A DNA stretch of 64,000 nucleotides from Limnohabitans sp. T6-5 (GTDB lineage Bacteria; Pseudomonadota; Gammaproteobacteria; Burkholderiales; Burkholderiaceae_C). Location of the stretch: assembly GCF_003063315.1 (NCBI RefSeq), contig NZ_NERV01000001.1:186001-250000 (forward strand), in the 5' to 3' direction. A program made the position numbers and the translations under genes. This document shows positions 14,453-59,855 of the stretch, in pieces (position 1 is the stretch's first letter; each line of letters begins with the position of its first letter). Below the pieces are notes generated by a model. That model was not told the DNA's origin and ran no database searches. It saw nothing but the letters and a program-made list of their open reading frames with translations.

Positions 14453-14529
14453 TGGTCGGCGTGGCGGGATTCGAACTCGCGACCCCTTGCACCCCATGCA
14501 AGTGCGCTACCAGGCTGCGCTACACGCCG
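14453..14529 (-). tRNA. tRNA-Pro (anticodon GGG)
   Basis: 77 nt including an encoded CCA end. Acceptor stem CGGCGTG/CACGCCG; D arm with GCGCAGCCTGGTAGCGC; anticodon stem CTTGC/GCAAG with loop ATGGGGT, giving anticodon GGG (CCC codons); T arm with GTTCGAATC. The element to the left ends at its 3' end, so this is very probably the integration site, with the tRNA rebuilt by the element or left intact on this side. It lies just downstream of merR on the same strand. Confidence 0.97.
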
Positions 14530-35527: not shown

Positions 35528-35591
35528 ATGTCGGGGCTGAAGCCACCGATCCACAGGAAATTTCTTGGGTCGGTGGCTTCAGCCCCGACAT
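35528..35591. repeat. Perfect long palindrome of the GTCGGGGCTGAAGCC family
   Basis: Arms 35528-35549 and 35570-35591 are exact 22-base inverted copies (core TGTCGGGGCTGAAGCCACCG) around a 20-base loop. It lies between the IclR start and the pobA start. Confidence 0.92.
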
Positions 35592-40764: not shown

Positions 40765-42876
40765 ATGAACGCATCCACCCCTTGGCTCTTGGCCACGGCC
40801 ATGCTCAGCCTGGCCAGCCACAACGCCCAAGCCCGTGTCACCCGCATCGTGATCGACGACACCCGGCCTGTTGCCGCATCACCTGCCGCGCCCGGCAAAC
40901 CTGCGGGCATCGCTTATGAGCAAGTCGTTGGCCGCGCCTTTGGCGAGCTGGACCCCAAACTCGCACAAAACGCCATCATCCAGGACATCGAACTGGCCAA
41001 AGACGCCGACGGCAAAGTCCGCTACATGGCGTCCTTTGTGATCTACAAGCCCGTGAACCTCAAAGACGCCAGCGGCCTGATGTGGCACGACGTGCCCAAC
41101 CGGGGCCGGGTGGGCTTGCCCGCTGAGCATGAGCTGGCGGCAGGCGACATCGGTCTGCTCAGCGCCTGGCAAGGTGACAACGCGGGCGCTACCGCTGTCA
41201 AACCCAAGGCCAGCATCGACGGCATGCAGTTTTTGCAAGTGCCTGTGGCGCGCAACGCCGACGGCAGCACCGTCCAGGGCCAGGTGTTCGCCCGCATCGT
41301 CAACCGCGCAGGCCCGGCCTCGCAGCCGCTCATGGTGCAGACCAACCCTGTGCCCTACAAACCCGCGAGCCTCGACACCGCCAAAGCCACCCTGGTCTCT
41401 CGCGGGCGCGAGAACATGAATGGCGAAGTCTTTGACGAGCAAACCATCGCCCCCACCGACTGGGCCTGGGCCAAGTGCGACGCGCAAAACCCCTTTCCGG
41501 GCACGCCCGACCCCACACAGATTTGCCTGAAAAACGGCTTTGACGCCAAGCGCATGTACCAGGTCGTCTTCACGGCGCAAGACCCCTATGTGCTGGGCAT
41601 CGGCTTTGCCGCCTGGCGCGATGTGGCCGTGTTCTTCAAGCACGCCAAGGCCGACGACGCGGGCACCCCCAACCCGGTGGCCAGCACCGTCACGCACAGC
41701 ATTGCGCGGGGCATCTCGCAGTCAGGCAACTACCTGCGAGGCTGGCTGCACCTGGGCTTCAACCAGGACGAAGCGGGTCAACAAGTGCACGAAGGCCTGT
41801 GGCCCATCATCGCGGGCCGCCGCATTGCGCTCAACTTCCGCTGGGCGCAGCCCGACGGCGTGTTGGAGCTGTACCAGGCAGGCAGCGAAGGCCCACAGTG
41901 GTGGCTGCCCCACCCCGACCCGGTGCGCGGCACACCCGCAGCAGGCATCCTGGACCGCTGCACCCAGACCCGCACCTGCCCCAAGATCATGGAGCATTTC
42001 GGCTCGGCCGAAGTCTGGGCTTTGAAGCTCACGCCCGAGTGGATCGGCACCGACGCCAAGCAAGATCTGCCCCTGCCCGCCAACGTCAAGCGCTATTACA
42101 TTGCCAGCAGCAACCACGGCGGTGGCGCGGGCGGCTTTGACACCAGCATTCCCGGTGCGGCCCTGCCCAAGGCAGGCCCCATGTGCCCAGGCAACAACTT
42201 TGGCCAGGGCCTGCTGCCTGCCAACCCTGTCCCGCACAAAGAGACTGTCAACGCCTTGCGCTTGCACTTTCGCCACTGGGTCATGAAAGGCACCGAGCCG
42301 CCCGCCAGCCGCTACCCCACGCTGGCCAAAAACCAGCTGGCCGTGGCCGAGAAAACCGCGCTGGGCTACCCCAGCCTGCCGGGCCTGCGCCCCACTGTGC
42401 CTGAGCGCGACTTCATCATGCCCGTGCACGATTACGACTGGGGCCCCGGCTTCAAGGCGGTGGATGGCTCGGGCGTGCCCAGCAATGCGCCACCCAAAAT
42501 CAAACAGGTGCTGACCATGTACGCGCCCAAAGTCGACGCCGACGGCAATGAACTGGGCGGCGTGCCCGTGGTGCTGCTCGATGCACCGCTGGGCACTTAC
42601 CTGGGCTGGAACGTGACAGCAGGCGGCGCCAAACCCTTCCACCAGGGCGAGATCTGCAACTACGTGGGCGGCATGGTGCCCTTTGCCAGGACCGCTGCCG
42701 AGCGTCAAGCCATCGGCGACACCCGCCCATCTTTGCAAGAGCGCTATGGCTCACACGAGGGCTATGTGCAAGCCGTGCGCAAGGCCACTGAACGCGCTGT
42801 GCAAGAACGCTTTTTGCTGCCTGAAGACGCGCTAGACCTGATCGACGCCGCGCAAAAGAGCGCTGTGTTGCGCTGA
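40765..42876 (+). CDS. Secreted alpha/beta-hydrolase-domain protein
   Basis: 703 residues with an N-terminal signal peptide (about 1-23, ending 'SHNAQA'). The nucleophile elbow is in 'RGISQSGNYLRGWLHLGF' (G-x-S-x-S-G). A conserved core 'GRRIALNFRWAQPDGVLELY', 'WALKLTPEWIGTDAKQDLPL', 'YYIASSNHGGGAGGF' and 'LGWNVTAGGAKPFHQGEICN' is shared by the large 'alpha/beta hydrolase domain-containing' family (Abhydrolase_10). Probably a periplasmic esterase or amidase; natural substrate unknown. Confidence 0.85.
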   Translation: MNASTPWLLATAMLSLASHNAQARVTRIVIDDTRPVAASPAAPGKPAGIAYEQVVGRAFGELDPKLAQNAIIQDIELAKDADGKVRYMASFVIYKPVNLKDASGLMWHDVPNRGRVGLPAEHELAAGDIGLLSAWQGDNAGATAVKPKASIDGMQFLQVPVARNADGSTVQGQVFARIVNRAGPASQPLMVQTNPVPYKPASLDTAKATLVSRGRENMNGEVFDEQTIAPTDWAWAKCDAQNPFPGTPDPTQICLKNGFDAKRMYQVVFTAQDPYVLGIGFAAWRDVAVFFKHAKADDAGTPNPVASTVTHSIARGISQSGNYLRGWLHLGFNQDEAGQQVHEGLWPIIAGRRIALNFRWAQPDGVLELYQAGSEGPQWWLPHPDPVRGTPAAGILDRCTQTRTCPKIMEHFGSAEVWALKLTPEWIGTDAKQDLPLPANVKRYYIASSNHGGGAGGFDTSIPGAALPKAGPMCPGNNFGQGLLPANPVPHKETVNALRLHFRHWVMKGTEPPASRYPTLAKNQLAVAEKTALGYPSLPGLRPTVPERDFIMPVHDYDWGPGFKAVDGSGVPSNAPPKIKQVLTMYAPKVDADGNELGGVPVVLLDAPLGTYLGWNVTAGGAKPFHQGEICNYVGGMVPFARTAAERQAIGDTRPSLQERYGSHEGYVQAVRKATERAVQERFLLPEDALDLIDAAQKSAVLR

Positions 42877-42897
42877 AAGCCTGCACATCAGGCCACT

Positions 42898-42925
42898 TGT
42901 CGGGGCTGAAGCCAGCGACCTACGG
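42898..42925. repeat. Single GTCGGGGCTGAAGCC element
   Basis: TTGTCGGGGCTGAAGCCAGC then GACCTAC: one half of the dispersed palindrome, between convergent genes. Confidence 0.75.
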
Positions 42926-42949
42926 GGTGACTTGGCGCCAATTTTTCAG

Positions 42950-44041
42950 TCAAGGCGCTGATTCAAACCGCACCGGAATGCGCTGGCGCCCAAACGGTTT
43001 GAACGCCTGGCCCTCGGGCGCAAAGTGCCCGGGCAAGGGATGCGCGCAGTGCCCGCAACGGTTGCCCTGCAGGGCGTTGTGCGTCACCAGGTGCCAGTCA
43101 CGCACCAGCACGGGCGCCTGACACAGCGGGCAAAAGGTCGTGCCGCCTTGCGCATCGTGCACGTTGCCGGTGTAGACAAAGCGCAGGCCTTCGCCCATGG
43201 CGATGTGCCTGGCTCGGGCCAGCGTCTCGGGCGGGGTGCGGGGTCGGTCCTGCATCTTGTAGTCCGGGTGAAAGGCCGTGAAATGCAGCGGCACATCGGG
43301 CCCCAGCTCACGCACCATCCAGCGCGACAGGGCCGTGAGTTCGGCATCCGAATCGTTGGCCCCGGGAATCAGCAAAGTGGTGACCTCCAGCCAGCAGCGG
43401 GTGGCATGCCGCACATGCACCAGGGTGTCGAGCACGTTGTTCAAATCTCCGGCGCACCATTGGCTGTAAAAGTCTTGCGTAAAGGCCTTGAGGTCGATGT
43501 TGGCCGCATCCATGTGGGCAAAAAACTCACGCCGGGGCGCATCATGGATAAAACCCGCCGTGACCGCCACCGATTTCACGCCCGCTGCACGGCAAGCTTG
43601 CGCGGTGTCGATGGCGTACTCGGCAAAGATGACCGGGTCGTTGTAAGTGAAGGCCACCATCGGCGTTTGCAGTTGCACGCAGGCGGCGGCAATTTCTGCG
43701 GGCATCACACGCTGACCCAGTTTGTCGACATCGCGGCTTTTGGAGATGTCCCAGTTCTGGCAAAACTTGCACGACAGGTTGCACCCCGCAGTGCCAAAGC
43801 TCAAGATGCTGCTGCCCGGATAAAAATGGTTGAGCGGCTTTTTCTCGACCGGGTCCAGACAAAAACCGCTGGAGCGGCCATAGGTGTCCAGCACCATCTG
43901 ATCGCCCACACGCTGACGCACAAAACACAAACCGCGCTGCCCCTCGTGCAGCTTGCACTCACGCGGGCACAGATCGCACTGCATGCGGCCATCGGCCAGC
44001 ATCTGCCACCAGCGGGCGGGGTATGGCGTGTCAGGTTGCAT
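42950..44041 (-). CDS. AmmeMemoRadiSam system radical SAM enzyme
   Basis: 363 residues from ATG 44041. 'MQCDLCPRECKLHEGQRGLC' is a Cys-rich N-terminal motif of this family, and 'GTAGCNLSCKFCQNWDIS' provides the C-x3-C-x2-C radical SAM cluster. 'FTYNDPVIFAEYAIDTAQAC' and 'FHPDYKMQDRPRTPPETL' follow, and the C-terminus has a zinc-ribbon-like pair ('FCPLCQAPVL', 'RCGHCAHPLPGH'). Its start overlaps the Memo-AMMECR1 gene by 11 bases, so both are made together. The reaction catalysed by this system is not established. Confidence 0.92.
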   Translation of the reverse strand: MQPDTPYPARWWQMLADGRMQCDLCPRECKLHEGQRGLCFVRQRVGDQMVLDTYGRSSGFCLDPVEKKPLNHFYPGSSILSFGTAGCNLSCKFCQNWDISKSRDVDKLGQRVMPAEIAAACVQLQTPMVAFTYNDPVIFAEYAIDTAQACRAAGVKSVAVTAGFIHDAPRREFFAHMDAANIDLKAFTQDFYSQWCAGDLNNVLDTLVHVRHATRCWLEVTTLLIPGANDSDAELTALSRWMVRELGPDVPLHFTAFHPDYKMQDRPRTPPETLARARHIAMGEGLRFVYTGNVHDAQGGTTFCPLCQAPVLVRDWHLVTHNALQGNRCGHCAHPLPGHFAPEGQAFKPFGRQRIPVRFESAP

Positions 44042-45734
44042 GGTCTGCCTCGGTGAACTTTTGCACCCGGTACACCGACAGGCGCACCGCATCCGACCAA
44101 TGGTCAGAAGGCAAACCCGCCTTGCGCTTGAGCTGCGCCATGAACTTGCGCGGATCGGGCAACTGATCCCACACCTGCGGCAAGAAGGTGCTGCGATAGG
44201 CCCGCCCCTCATGCTCACAGCTGAAGATCACGCCGTGCTCATGCGGCTGCAACTGCCACAGGGCGTGCGATTCGTTGGCAAAGGGCAGCGGCTCGGGCGC
44301 CGTCAAGACCGACACCTCCACCGCCAGAGTGGGCGCCTCTTGGGCCGTCACAGGGGCAAAGCGAGGGTCTTTCAAAGCAGCGGCTTGCGCATTGGCCATG
44401 ATGTCTTCGTGCAATGACCGATGCGCCTGCAAGCTGCCAATGCAGCCGCGCAGCTGGCCCGCCTGGGTCAAGGTCACAAAACTCGCGCCCAATTCGTTCA
44501 AGGCCTGCACAGCGGGCGCAGGCACCGGGGCAGACACTGGGGCAGCCGCTGTGGCCCGGTGCAAGCTGTGCCGTGCCAATTGCAGCAAACTGGCTCCGGC
44601 TTGCGCATCCAGCCCAGACACCGCGCTTGGCACGGGGGGCTCATACAAAGCAAAGCTGGCATACCCCACCACCCGCTGGCGGCCTTCGGGGGCGTTGCCC
44701 GCTGTGTCGCCCGAGTTGCAATACCCCAGCTGCCGCACCTGCAAAGCACGGGTGCGCGCTTGCAGCAAAGCCGCATTGAGCGGCGTTGCGCCACAGGCTT
44801 GCTGGTGGTTCAGGTCAGTCGCCATGGACAGCACCTGAGCGCAGGTGGCCAGGTCCATGCTGCAGGCCTGTTCATAGGTGTGAAAGTGCGACAGGTCCGT
44901 GCTGATGAGGATCAAGGTGTCGTCTCCGCCCCACAGTCGGTCGAGCAGCAAGGCCACATCTTGCGGCGACACCGCGCCCACCAGCAGCGGCAATACCCGG
45001 GGCAATTCCTGCCCGGCCCACAGCCGCTGAATGAAGGGCAAATGCACCTCCAGACAGTGCTCCTGCGCGTGGGCTTCGGGCACCGACAGCACAAAGGGCA
45101 AATCGGCCACGGCATGCGCGGCCAAAGAATCCACCTCCACACCCCCCAAAGGCGTGGCAAAACTGCCCACGCCAGGCAAAGCCACGCCCCGCACCGCCAT
45201 GCGGTGAGTCGGCCCCAAAATCACGATCTTGCGAATGCGCTGCAAATGCGGGCGCAGCAAGGCATAGCCCTGCGCCGCCATGCCCCCCGAATACACATGC
45301 CCGGCATGCGGCAGCACCAGCACCTTGGGCGGCTGCACCTCATCCCGCACCTGCTGAGCCTGCTGTGCCTGTGACAAGGCCGCATCCACATCACGGGCCA
45401 ATTGCGCCGCATCCCCCGCGTAAAACCGCCCCGCCAAAGCGGGTGGGCGCACTATGGCCAGATACGCTTGCGCCAGTTCTTGCTCCAGAGCTTGCGCCTG
45501 AGGCTGCTTCAAGGCCAAACCTGCAGCCCGGTGACGGGCCGCCTCCACGCGGCCAACGCCCAACTCCACCCGTGCCAAATTGGCCTCGATCCCCACATCG
45601 TCTGGCGCATGTGCGTGGGCTTGTTGCAATAAGCCCAAGGCCTGCTCACGCTGTCCGCCCTGCCAGGCAGCAAAAGCCTGCTGAATCCAGCTCGCCACGG
45701 AGGCCGATGAGGTGTTGTGCAAAGTTTCAGACAT
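44031..45734 (-). CDS. TPR-Memo-AMMECR1 fusion protein
   Basis: 567 residues from ATG 45734. Residues about 10-95 are a short TPR-like helical region ('FAAWQGGQREQALGLLQQAH'). Residues about 105-370 are a Memo domain: 'LAGRFYAGDA', 'VLPHAGHVYSGGMAAQGYAL', 'ILGPTHRMAVRGVALPG', 'EHCLEVHLPFIQRLW' and 'ISTDLSHFHTYEQA', with the metal-site His residues. Residues about 385-560 are AMMECR1: 'LRGCIGSLQAHRSLHEDIMA' is the family signature. The partner radical SAM gene follows. The N-terminal TPR is unusual. Confidence 0.9.
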   Translation of the reverse strand: MSETLHNTSSASVASWIQQAFAAWQGGQREQALGLLQQAHAHAPDDVGIEANLARVELGVGRVEAARHRAAGLALKQPQAQALEQELAQAYLAIVRPPALAGRFYAGDAAQLARDVDAALSQAQQAQQVRDEVQPPKVLVLPHAGHVYSGGMAAQGYALLRPHLQRIRKIVILGPTHRMAVRGVALPGVGSFATPLGGVEVDSLAAHAVADLPFVLSVPEAHAQEHCLEVHLPFIQRLWAGQELPRVLPLLVGAVSPQDVALLLDRLWGGDDTLILISTDLSHFHTYEQACSMDLATCAQVLSMATDLNHQQACGATPLNAALLQARTRALQVRQLGYCNSGDTAGNAPEGRQRVVGYASFALYEPPVPSAVSGLDAQAGASLLQLARHSLHRATAAAPVSAPVPAPAVQALNELGASFVTLTQAGQLRGCIGSLQAHRSLHEDIMANAQAAALKDPRFAPVTAQEAPTLAVEVSVLTAPEPLPFANESHALWQLQPHEHGVIFSCEHEGRAYRSTFLPQVWDQLPDPRKFMAQLKRKAGLPSDHWSDAVRLSVYRVQKFTEADHAT

Positions 45735-45826
45735 GGTCCTGATTTCCTGCCAAAAGTCCAAAGAACAAATCGCAGGCAAGCTTACTTCACTTCAGTGCGG
45801 ACATTTCAGGCGCCGGCACAGGCCCT

Positions 45827-45854
45827 TGTCGGGGCTGAAGCCGCCGACCTACAA
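45827..45854. repeat. Single GTCGGGGCTGAAGCC element
   Basis: TGTCGGGGCTGAAGCCGCCG then ACCTACAA, with a weak inverted partner (TGGTCGGTCGCC) just downstream. Confidence 0.8.
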
Positions 45855-45885
45855 ATACTCTCGATGGTCGGTCGCCACAGCGGCG

Positions 45886-46638
45886 TCAGGACTTGCCGGC
45901 ACTGAAGCCACCGTCGACCAACAACTGCGCACCGGTGACAAAACTGGCCTCATCGCTGAGCAGGAAGACAACCGCATTGGCCACCTCTTTGGGCTGACCG
46001 AGTCGGCCCAGGGGGTGAAGGCTGGTCAAAAATTGGCGCTTTGCCACATCAATGCCAGAAAGCAAGGGCGTATCAATGTAGCCTGGGCAAATCGTGTTCA
46101 CGCGCACCCCATGGCTGGCTGCCTCCAATGCAAGCGTGTGGGTCAGATTGACCACGCCTCCTTTGGCTGCGCTGTAAGCGGCTGTGTGGCTCTGCCCAAG
46201 CAAGCCCAAAATGGATGAACAGTTGACGATGCTGCCATGCCCCTGCTGGTACATGTGGCGCAACGATGCCCGCGCCACCCGAAACACCCCCACCAGATCA
46301 ATGTCAAGCACGCGGCCAAAGTCCTCGTCGGTGTATTGCTCGGCCGGGCTCAAGCCACCCACGCCTGCATTGTTGAAGACACCATCCAGACTGCCAAACG
46401 CCTCGACCGTGAGGTTCACCATCTTGTCCACCTGATCTGTCGAGGTCACGTCCACGGGCACAAAGATGCAGCACCCGGGGTACATCAGGCTCAAATCCAC
46501 CACCCGCTCCTGCCCTGGCGAGGTGGGCAAATCGGCCAGCGCCACCCGGGCACCTTCTTGCAAGCATCGGTCTGCCGTGGCCAACCCAATGCCACTGGCC
46601 GCGCCGGTGATGAGGATGGTTTGATGGGCAAGTCGCAT
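45886..46638 (-). CDS. Short-chain dehydrogenase/reductase
   Basis: 250 residues from ATG 46638 with AGGAG upstream. Cofactor loop 'TGAASGIG' at 11-18, Asp in 'VALADLP' favouring NAD(H), 'VFNNAGVGGL', catalytic Ser142, Tyr155 and Lys159 ('CSSILGLLGQSHTAAYSAAK'), and 'NTICPGYIDTPLL'. Substrate unknown. Divergent from the ftsH-like gene. Confidence 0.9.
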   Translation of the reverse strand: MRLAHQTILITGAASGIGLATADRCLQEGARVALADLPTSPGQERVVDLSLMYPGCCIFVPVDVTSTDQVDKMVNLTVEAFGSLDGVFNNAGVGGLSPAEQYTDEDFGRVLDIDLVGVFRVARASLRHMYQQGHGSIVNCSSILGLLGQSHTAAYSAAKGGVVNLTHTLALEAASHGVRVNTICPGYIDTPLLSGIDVAKRQFLTSLHPLGRLGQPKEVANAVVFLLSDEASFVTGAQLLVDGGFSAGKS

Positions 46639-46903
46639 ATGAATCTCCTGAAAGCGCTGGCGCAATCTGGCACCAACCGTGTGAAAAGTCCCCTTGCATT
46701 GCAACGCAGGGTCGTGACCAAGGCATTACTTGAAACAAGGTAAGCCCGTTGTCATCTCCTCATTTCATTGCGCTAACGCAAGGAACAGAGACCCCGCTGT
46801 GTTCAGCATGCAGGTTTTGTCACCTCGGACAAGCATGAACACGAGCCTCATGGCCACAGCGATCCGGGAGTGCTCCCAACCGATCTTCACCGAATCCATC
46901 CGC

Positions 46904-48763
46904 ATGAGCCGACCGCCCTCTGTCCCCCCTTCTGCGCAAAACCGGAAAATTTGGACCGTGGTCTACGTGGTCATGGCCACGCTGACACTGATCTGGTTAC
47001 AAGGCCTGTTTCAGGGCTCGGCCACCATCGACATGGTGCCTTACAGCCAATTTGAACAAGCGCTGAGCGAGGGGCGCATCCAGGAAGTCACCGTGTCAGA
47101 CAAAACCCTGACCGGCCAACTGAAAGAAGCCATCAACGGGAAAACTCGCTGGGTCACCATCCGCATCGAACCCGACCTGGCCACCCGCCTGGACCGTTTC
47201 AAAGTGCCCTATTCACGAGTCATTGAAACCACTTGGCTGCGCGATGTGTTGAATCTGATTTTGCCCTCACTGGTCTTTTTTGGACTCTGGTTTTTCCTGA
47301 TCCGTCGCCTGGTCGGGCAGCAAGGCGCAGGCAGTTTCCTGAACATTGGCAAAAGCAAGGCCAAGGTCTATGTGATGCAAGTCACGGGCGTGAGCTTTGC
47401 CGATGTCGCCGGGGTCGATGAGGCCAAGCAAGAACTGATGGAGGTGGTCGATTTTTTAAAGCATCCACAAGACTATGGCCGCCTGGGCGCGCACATTCCC
47501 AAAGGCGTCTTGCTTGTGGGGCCGCCAGGCACCGGCAAAACACTGCTCGCCAAAGCCGTGGCCGGTGAGGCGGGCGTGCCCTTCTTTTCGATGTCGGGCA
47601 GCGAGTTTGTGGAAATGTTTGTGGGTGTGGGCGCTGCGCGTGTGCGCGACCTGTTTGAGCAAGCACGCCTCAAAGCGCCCGCCATCATTTTCATTGACGA
47701 GCTGGATGCGCTGGGCCGCGCTCGGGGCGCCTTCCCCGGCCTGGGCGGGCACGACGAAAAAGAGCAAACCCTTAACCAATTGCTGGCCGAAATGGATGGT
47801 TTTGACACCTCATCGGGGGTGATCATTCTGGCAGCCACCAACCGACCGGAGATTCTGGACCCGGCCTTGCTGCGGGCGGGCCGATTTGACCGACAGGTGC
47901 TGGTGGACAAACCCGACAAAAAGGGGCGGCTGGACATCCTGAAAGTGCATGCCCAAAAAATCTCACTCGATGCACAGTTGTCGCTTGAAGCCGTGGCCGC
48001 CATCACACCGGGCTTCAGCGGCGCAGACCTGGCCAATTTGGTCAACGAAGCGGCCATTGTGGCCACCCGCCGCAAAGCGAACAGCGTGACCCTGGCCGAC
48101 TTTACGGCAGCGGTGGAACGCATCGTGGCCGGTCTGGAAAAACGCAACCGCGTGCTGAACCCCCATGAAAGGCTCACTGTCGCACACCACGAAATGGGGC
48201 ATGTGCTGGTCGCACTGGCCCTGCCAGACAGCGACACCGTGCACAAGGTGTCCATCATTGCGCGGGGCATCGGCTCGTTGGGCTACACCATCCAGCGCCC
48301 CACCGAAGACCGCTACCTCATGACCCGGGAGGAGCTGGAGCGCAAGATTTGTGTCTTGCTGGGTGGGCGTGCCGCAGAAAAATTGATGCTCGGCCACCTC
48401 TCGACAGGCGCAGCCGATGATCTGGCCAAAGCCACCCAAATTGCCCGTGAAATGGTCACACGCTTTGGCATGGATGACGATCTGGGCTGTGTGAGCCATG
48501 ACAGCAACCGAGCCATTTCGCCCGGAATGCCCGAAGTTTTTGGCAATCCGCCAACACCCGTATCCGAAGCCACGCTGCAACGCATGGATGCCGCCATTGA
48601 CCGCCTCATGACAAGCGGTTTGCAGCGTGCAGAGGACATTTTGAGCCGAAACCGTGACCTGCTGGCACGCTGCTCACAAGAATTGCTCCAACAAGAAACG
48701 CTTGATGCAGAGGCCTTGAAAGTACTCACTGCAGATCTCAAAAAAGAACCCGCCAGTGAATAA
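46904..48763 (+). CDS. FtsH-like AAA+ zinc metalloprotease (second copy type)
   Basis: 619 residues from ATG 46904; ATGs at 46808, 46835 and 46850 in the same frame are alternatives, none with a strong ribosome site. Two membrane helices (about 17-35 and 118-136) enclose a small periplasmic domain. AAA+ motor: Walker A 'GPPGTGKT' 206-213, pore loop '[17 protein letters not shown]', Walker B 'IIFIDE' 261-266, second region '[18 protein letters not shown]'. Protease site '[13 protein letters not shown]' has H-E-x-x-H (429-433), with Met where the main FtsH has Ala. Likely an extra FtsH working on membrane proteins under stress. Confidence 0.9.
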
Positions 48764-59696: not shown

Positions 59697-59765
59697 ATGT
59701 CGGGGCTGAAGCCGCCGACCTACAAAGACCACTCTCCCGTAGGTCGGTAGCTTCAGCTCCGACAT
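59697..59765. repeat. GTCGGGGCTGAAGCC palindromic repeat
   Basis: ATGTCGGGGCTGAAGCCGCC with GACCTACAA at left and GTAGGTCGGTAGCTTCAGCT with CCGACAT at right. Confidence 0.88.
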
Positions 59766-59786
59766 TGTTCGCTTCGTTGCAGGCCC

Positions 59787-59855
59787 ATGTCGGGGCTAAA
59801 GCCGCCGACCTACAAAGTCCACTCTCCCGTCGGTCGGTAGCTTCAGCACCGACGT
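59787..59855. repeat. GTCGGGGCTGAAGCC palindromic repeat, tandem copy
   Basis: ATGTCGGGGCTAAAGCCGCC at left and CGGTCGGTAGCTTCAGCACC with GACGT at right; 90 bases from the preceding copy. Confidence 0.88.

What the first reader, a model, noticed from the sequence alone, without database searches (positions are those of the whole stretch)
42950..45734. Fused TPR-Memo-AMMECR1 with its radical SAM partner
The three conserved AmmeMemoRadiSam parts are reduced to two overlapping genes, and a TPR-like region precedes Memo. The fusion implies the parts act as one machine. The reaction of this system is still unknown.
Basis: partly seen in the sequence, partly recalled or inferred. Interest (0 to 1): 0.5.

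Follow-up and report, generated by a model that had tools for sequence, protein, structure and literature searches.

The report
Radical-SAM redox system with added TPR
A freshwater bacterium carries a known but unexplained three-part redox system packed into two overlapping genes, one of which has gained a small protein-docking repeat domain found so far in only a few relatives; this is a real but modest variation on a known theme.

Summary
Window 44031-45734 (-) encodes one 567-residue protein: two TPR repeats (13-46, 47-80), Memo (98-360), AMMECR1 (385-560). It overlaps by 11 nt a PFL-activase-like radical SAM gene (42950-44041, -). All three AmmeMemoRadiSam models score over cut-off. The TPR part is real: it is under purifying selection, and differs from a relative's by exactly one 34-residue repeat.

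Memo-AMMECR1 fusion itself is common (28 of 80 radical SAM loci). The TPR form is rare: six genomes of one supported clade (four of 90 Limnohabitans genomes, G167, G190). The listed rows of family, order and phylum samples (399, 399, 398 genomes) gave no other; order and phylum lists were capped.

One result goes further. G190 keeps an open TPR-Memo-AMMECR1 gene but no radical SAM gene was found, and its Memo has lost seven of eight residues around the metal site that 109 other fusions keep (four with E225D). This suggests that, in this lineage, Memo's metal site has no use without the radical SAM enzyme. Eight genomes with a confirmed radical SAM gene lack both glycyl-radical families searched.

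The parts
44031..45734 (-). TPR-Memo-AMMECR1 fusion gene, 567 aa, ATG at 45734, TGA at 44033-44031
   Evidence: models
45495..45698 (-). two tandem TPR repeats (residues 13-46 and 47-80)
   Evidence: purifying selection
44655..45443 (-). Memo domain (residues 98-360) with H143, H177, H222, E225, H226, D280, H283, C314
   Evidence: H143 and H177 align with MEMO1 H49 and H81 (numbering worked out by hand)
44055..44582 (-). AMMECR1 domain (residues 385-560) with the RGCxG motif at 429-433
42950..44041 (-). radical SAM gene (TIGR04337), 363 aa, CxxxCxxC at C87/C91/C94, further invariant Cys towards both ends
44031..44041 (-). 11-nt overlap of the two genes
45744..45748 (-). AGGAA, likely ribosome-binding site 9 nt upstream of ATG 45734
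   Evidence: read
42898..42923 (+). REP-like repeat at one edge of the two-gene block
45827..45852 (+). REP-like repeat at the other edge

Best explanation
It is an AmmeMemoRadiSam system in which the radical SAM enzyme and the Memo metal site act as one redox unit on the same target, with Memo and AMMECR1 made as a single chain and an added TPR that docks a partner or client protein. SHOWN by sequence: the domain order, the gene coupling, the conserved SAM-cluster motif, the conserved residues around the Memo metal site, and selection on the TPR. INFERRED: the radical SAM protein makes a 5'-deoxyadenosyl radical (family knowledge) and starts the reaction on a substrate held by Memo-AMMECR1. 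INFERRED: the Memo iron site (two His, one Cys in human MEMO1) finishes or controls it. INFERRED, weakest: the TPR recruits a protein client or the radical SAM partner itself.
For: The radical SAM gene follows AMMECR1 on the same strand in all 76 of 80 loci where AMMECR1 was found, within 60 nt in 69 of 76. In the window the genes overlap. Of 110 fusions, 105 keep all eight residues around the metal site, four have E225D, and one, G190, keeps only H226. No radical SAM gene was found in G190. There 20 of 29 invariant Memo positions changed against 5 of 18 in AMMECR1 (Fisher p 0.008; positions are not independent), and Pfam no longer sees Memo at E 0.05. Omega for G167-G190 is 0.52 in Memo, 0.31 in TPR, 0.26 in AMMECR1. 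TPR omega in Limnohabitans pairs is 0.09-0.19 in five of six pairs; the sixth, 0.32, rests on 4 synonymous changes. H143 and H177 align with the iron ligands H49 and H81 of MEMO1 (ligands from PMC11081632, passages).
Against: Human MEMO1 keeps the iron site and, to my knowledge (recalled), has no radical SAM partner, so the dependence is not universal. G190 is a single genome; its AMMECR1 is also worn (F419Y, L428P, L518P, Q520K, K538Q), so the whole gene may be decaying; its synonymous distances are near saturation. In Limnohabitans the TPR changes faster in amino acids than Memo (dN 0.10-0.20 against 0.08-0.10 in five pairs), omega being alike because dS is higher too in most pairs. No substrate, structure or complex was tested. 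C314 lies outside the HMMER alignments to MEMO1; its match to C244 rests on family conservation only. Nothing shows what the TPR binds.
Confidence: 0.4

Rival explanations
1. Maturase model: the radical SAM enzyme modifies the fusion protein itself (for example near the RGCxG loop of AMMECR1 or the Memo metal site) or another protein, as an activase does its partner, and the modified protein does the chemistry.
For: The only solved relatives found by the radical SAM profile are PFL-activating enzymes, which act on a protein. A related radical SAM domain is reported in peptide-processing systems (prediction in PMC7159879, passages). The eight genomes in which I saw the radical SAM gene (G000, G026, G458, G460, G167, G088, G213, G181) have neither PF01228 nor PF13597, so another target is needed. 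Gene overlap suits an equal-amounts pair. R429, G430, C431 and G433 are kept in all 110 fusions.
Against: No modification site is shown. AMMECR1 and Memo exist in eukaryotes without this enzyme (recalled). RGCxG is not the glycyl-radical motif (recalled).
Confidence: 0.25
2. Small-molecule pathway: the three domains are consecutive enzymes on a soluble metabolite (isoprenoid or base, as I recall Burroughs 2019 to propose); the TPR is a scaffold.
For: Memo has an extradiol-dioxygenase fold (PMC11081632, PMC7694686, passages). An ispD-like gene is a neighbour in 15 and an ispF-like gene in 6 of the loci compared (gene names from reading the sequences, not from a model).
Against: The ispD- and ispF-like genes are on the opposite strand in every such locus, and an mfd-like gene lies on the other side in 12 loci, so adjacency looks like insertion beside a conserved block. 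I saw none of them beside the window's operon in the frames. No dioxygenase activity has been found for MEMO1 (PMC11081632, passages).
Confidence: 0.25
3. The radical SAM protein is an activase of a glycyl-radical enzyme encoded elsewhere, and Memo-AMMECR1 is accessory.
For: Similarity to PFL-activating enzyme. Among the 56 genomes searched, 1 has PF01228 and 8 others have PF13597.
Against: 47 of 56 genomes, the own genome and all six TPR-form genomes among them, have neither, while control genomes such as E. coli ring. The 56 were picked by Memo-AMMECR1 matches; the radical SAM gene was confirmed in only eight of them, all without both families. The own genome is 93.71% complete, so a missed gene is possible.
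Confidence: 0.06
4. The TPR is a neutral passenger joined by chance.
For: It is absent from the sister groups G086 and g54 and no remnant was found upstream there, so the system can do without it.
Against: Purifying selection on it in Limnohabitans (omega 0.09-0.19 in five of six pairs); it is kept in G190 although the radical SAM gene is missing.
Confidence: 0.15

Closest known systems
AmmeMemoRadiSam system (NCBIfam TIGR04335, TIGR04336, TIGR04337)
   Same: All three parts, adjacent, each above its curated cut-off
   Different: Two genes, not three (fused also in 28 of 80 loci), plus an N-terminal TPR pair found in six genomes only
Human MEMO1 (PDB 7kq8) and AMMECR1
   Same: Memo by sequence, His ligands H49 and H81 aligned; AMMECR1 domain present
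   Different: Fused, with a radical SAM partner and TPR
PFL-activating enzyme (PDB 3c8f)
   Same: Radical SAM core over about 200 residues, CxxxCxxC
   Different: Extra invariant Cys towards N and C termini; no glycyl-radical partner found in the own genome
TPR proteins such as TTC0263 (PDB 2pl2)
   Same: 34-residue repeats
   Different: Only two repeats (three in G167 and G190), attached to Memo

Membership tests
AmmeMemoRadiSam | Memo component (TIGR04336) | tested here: met
   221.3 bits, cut-off 26
AmmeMemoRadiSam | AMMECR1 component (TIGR04335) | tested here: met
   182.5 bits, cut-off 99
AmmeMemoRadiSam | radical SAM component (TIGR04337) | tested here: met
   584.3 bits, cut-off 220; C87, C91, C94 invariant in 33 sequences
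AmmeMemoRadiSam | components encoded together | tested here: met
   11-nt overlap, same strand; one match each in the genome
Iron-binding Memo (human MEMO1 type) | H49 and H81 ligands | tested here: met
   H143 and H177 in the HMMER alignments to 7kq8
Iron-binding Memo (human MEMO1 type) | C244 ligand | tested here: inconclusive
   C314 is kept in 109 of 110 fusions but lies beyond the aligned stretch
Iron-binding Memo (human MEMO1 type) | binds iron | not testable with these tools
   needs protein
Glycyl-radical activase | a glycyl-radical partner in the genome | tested here: not met
   own genome (93.71% complete): no PF01228, no PF13597
TPR | tandem 34-residue repeats recognised by a curated model | tested here: met
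   29.6 bits for the N-terminal part alone, cut-off 25, though 22.4 in the whole-protein scan; 34-column indel
TPR | helical-pair fold | not testable with these tools
   structure jobs failed, tool switched off

The most novel reading that the evidence does not exclude
The TPR form is a client-specific version of the system: the radical SAM enzyme and Memo iron site together install a modification on a protein recruited by the TPR (or on the fusion itself). G190 is then a natural uncoupling mutant, in which Memo has become a pseudoenzyme after loss of the radical SAM gene while the TPR and AMMECR1 still do a binding job.
Probability: 0.15. Interest if true: 0.75.

Novelty: new variant of a known kind. 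Interest (0 to 1): 0.38.

Why it matters
Memo is conserved into humans and linked to disease, yet its chemistry is unknown (PMC11081632, passages). AMMECR1 has the highest importance of the seven anaerobe-side genes in a published oxygen-tolerance model (3.38% of 4,227 aerobes, 50.66% of 1,293 anaerobes; PMC13386939, passages). A compact two-gene form with a built-in docking domain gives a simple system for co-purifying a client, and G190 gives a natural test of which parts depend on each other.

Tried and rejected
Artefact of start choice: rejected. Glycyl-radical activase: made unlikely; odds moved from 0.05 to 0.06 on recheck, because the radical SAM gene was confirmed in only eight of the 56 genomes. 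Isoprenoid link through ispD/ispF-like neighbours: opposite strand, so not used as support for the main reading. FNR box upstream of the operon: none; 23 FNR-like matches in the window, 14.9 expected, 7 of 100 shuffles as many. No sigma-70-like promoter was found from 42850 to 46000. The one Rfam match of the window is a tRNA at 14456. Other N-terminal extensions as TPRs: 45 stretches scanned with Pfam; of the 16 only the G167 one carries TPR (one other holds an alcohol dehydrogenase frame); of the 29 none matches anything at E 0.1. TPR remnant upstream in G086 or four g54 genomes: none. In the listed rows of the order and phylum samples, matches that begin before profile position 60 (G797; G1200, G1103, G1037) have stop codons inside and were not counted; both lists were capped. 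In the family list the rows G306, G305, G256, G324 begin at 55-65 without stops: three were scanned without TPR (L126; L118, L124) and the fourth (L116) has only 35 residues before Memo. Papers: 'AmmeMemoRadiSam' gave 5 papers, one mention each (listing only). No paper on a TPR-Memo-AMMECR1 protein showed in the listings. Burroughs et al. 2019 (J Biol Chem) was not held and is cited from recall.

Full report
OBSERVATION. The first, 45734 to 44031, encodes 567 residues with Memo at 98-360 and AMMECR1 at 385-560. The second, 44041 to 42950, encodes a 363-residue radical SAM protein. Its start lies inside the end of the first gene, an 11-nt overlap. The three NCBIfam AmmeMemoRadiSam models all pass their cut-offs. 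Each gene has one match in the genome.

TPR. Residues 13-46 and 47-80 are two TPR repeats in tandem. The whole-protein scan left TPR_19 just under its cut-off (22.4 against 25), but the N-terminal part alone passes (29.6). Of the four Limnohabitans N-terminal parts, each passes the cut-off of TPR_19 or TPR_14. All six members with the extension match TPR_19 at E 0.1 or better. A profile of the six finds 8 solved sequences at E 0.01, all TPR proteins by their names or, for TTC0263 and the O-GlcNAc transferase, by recalled knowledge (best 2pl2, E 3.7e-08). G167 and G190 differ from Limnohabitans by an indel of 34 columns, one repeat. Between Limnohabitans species the TPR shows omega 0.09-0.19 in five of six pairs and 0.32 in the sixth (4 synonymous changes); Memo 0.08-0.16; AMMECR1 0.08-0.11 (Nei-Gojobori, own script, no bootstrap). 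The fold itself could not be predicted.

WHO HAS IT. The radical SAM gene is full-length in 4 of 90 genomes of the genus, with a fragment in a fifth, G469. The genus is Limnohabitans by inference: the 97% match L020 is Limnohabitans sp. DM1 on a contig of 19785 bases, and G458 has a contig of that number and length. All four have the TPR form. In the family sample 63 of 399 genomes match; three of these (G128, G134, G292) only through short TPR-like stretches. The TPR form was seen there in the own genome, G167 and G190. In the order sample 171 of 399 and in the phylum sample 119 of 398 genomes match, some only weakly; among the listed rows no unbroken TPR form appeared but the window's own (lists capped). 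Pfam scans of 45 other N-terminal stretches found TPR only in G167's. A tree of 113 fusion rows puts all six TPR rows in one clade of 13 rows (11 genomes) with SH-aLRT 100, together with G086 and genus g54, which lack it. The fewest changes are two (two gains); one gain with two losses needs three. The likeness of the two TPR stretches (E 1.4e-10) and the same junction make me favour one gain. G190's place is unsure because of its long branch.

ARCHITECTURE AT LARGE. Of 80 radical SAM loci, 28 have Memo and AMMECR1 in one frame, 46 separate, 4 only one of them in view (L067, L068, L081, L087), 2 neither (L054, L071). In L068, L071 and L081 the radical SAM match lies within 640 bases of the start of the stretch held, so parts may be cut off.

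G190. Its gene is open for 563 codons with TPR and AMMECR1 recognised and Memo not. Of eight residues around the metal site only H226 remains. No radical SAM gene was found in that genome (98% complete), nor a second Memo or AMMECR1. Shared neighbours with G167 (YVTN-type propeller and polysaccharide-deacetylase-like genes, named from reading the sequences) support common descent. As a control, G167 departs from none of the invariant positions. AMMECR1 in G190 is also worn at 5 of 18 invariant positions, so decay of the whole gene is an alternative to a retained binding role.

MECHANISM. Shown: anatomy, coupling, conservation, selection. Inferred: radical SAM and Memo metal site serve one reaction, and the TPR docks a protein. 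The maturase and small-molecule rivals are not excluded. A glycyl-radical role is unlikely: of 56 genomes with Memo-AMMECR1 matches, 1 has PF01228 and 8 others PF13597, so 47 have neither. The radical SAM gene was confirmed in eight of the 56, and those eight have neither.

LITERATURE. MEMO1 iron ligands H49, H81, C244, no dioxygenase activity found: PMC11081632 (passages). A radical SAM domain related to that of Memo-Ammecr1 systems in peptide-processing systems: PMC7159879 (passages). Memo in the dioxygenase superfamily: PMC7694686 (passages). Anaerobe marker: PMC13386939 (passages).

Noticed in passing
window 42898-42923, 45827-45852, 35529-35590, 59698-59813: REP-like 26-base repeat, 7 matches in the window with up to 3 mismatches (0 in 100 shuffles), one at each edge of the two-gene block.
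   Followed up: partly
L138 (G469) 2006-2281: Remnant of the radical SAM gene beside hipB- and hipA-like genes (named from reading); the same pair sits beside the intact system in L134 (96% over 1606 bases), so the system looks deleted in G469.
   Followed up: partly
window 46730-48763 (+); L133 6152-8167: An FtsH-like protease gene (named from reading) lies two genes from the system in the window and next to it in G458 (84% over 1958 bases), not in the aligned stretches of L134 or L135. PMC7159879 (passages) reports a related radical SAM domain in FtsH-containing systems; any link here is untested.
   Followed up: partly
L054 (Pseudomonas sagittaria): Radical SAM gene with no Memo or AMMECR1 match in the 17 kb held.
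   Followed up: partly
L067 and L087 (Variovorax): Memo and radical SAM genes adjacent, but no AMMECR1 match in the stretch held.
   Followed up: no
15 of 80 loci, for example L071 1115-1903: An alpha/beta-hydrolase-like gene (named from reading) follows the radical SAM gene on the same strand; a phosphoribosyltransferase-like gene is in 12 loci.
   Followed up: partly
L077, L046, L057: Contigs labelled Halobacteria, Chitinophaga and Bordetella rank among the closest matches, between betaproteobacterial ones; the labels of these metagenome bins may be wrong.
   Followed up: no
L036 6573-9092: Memo and AMMECR1 lie in different frames and Memo's frame runs on into the radical SAM region; possibly a frameshift in the assembly.
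   Followed up: no
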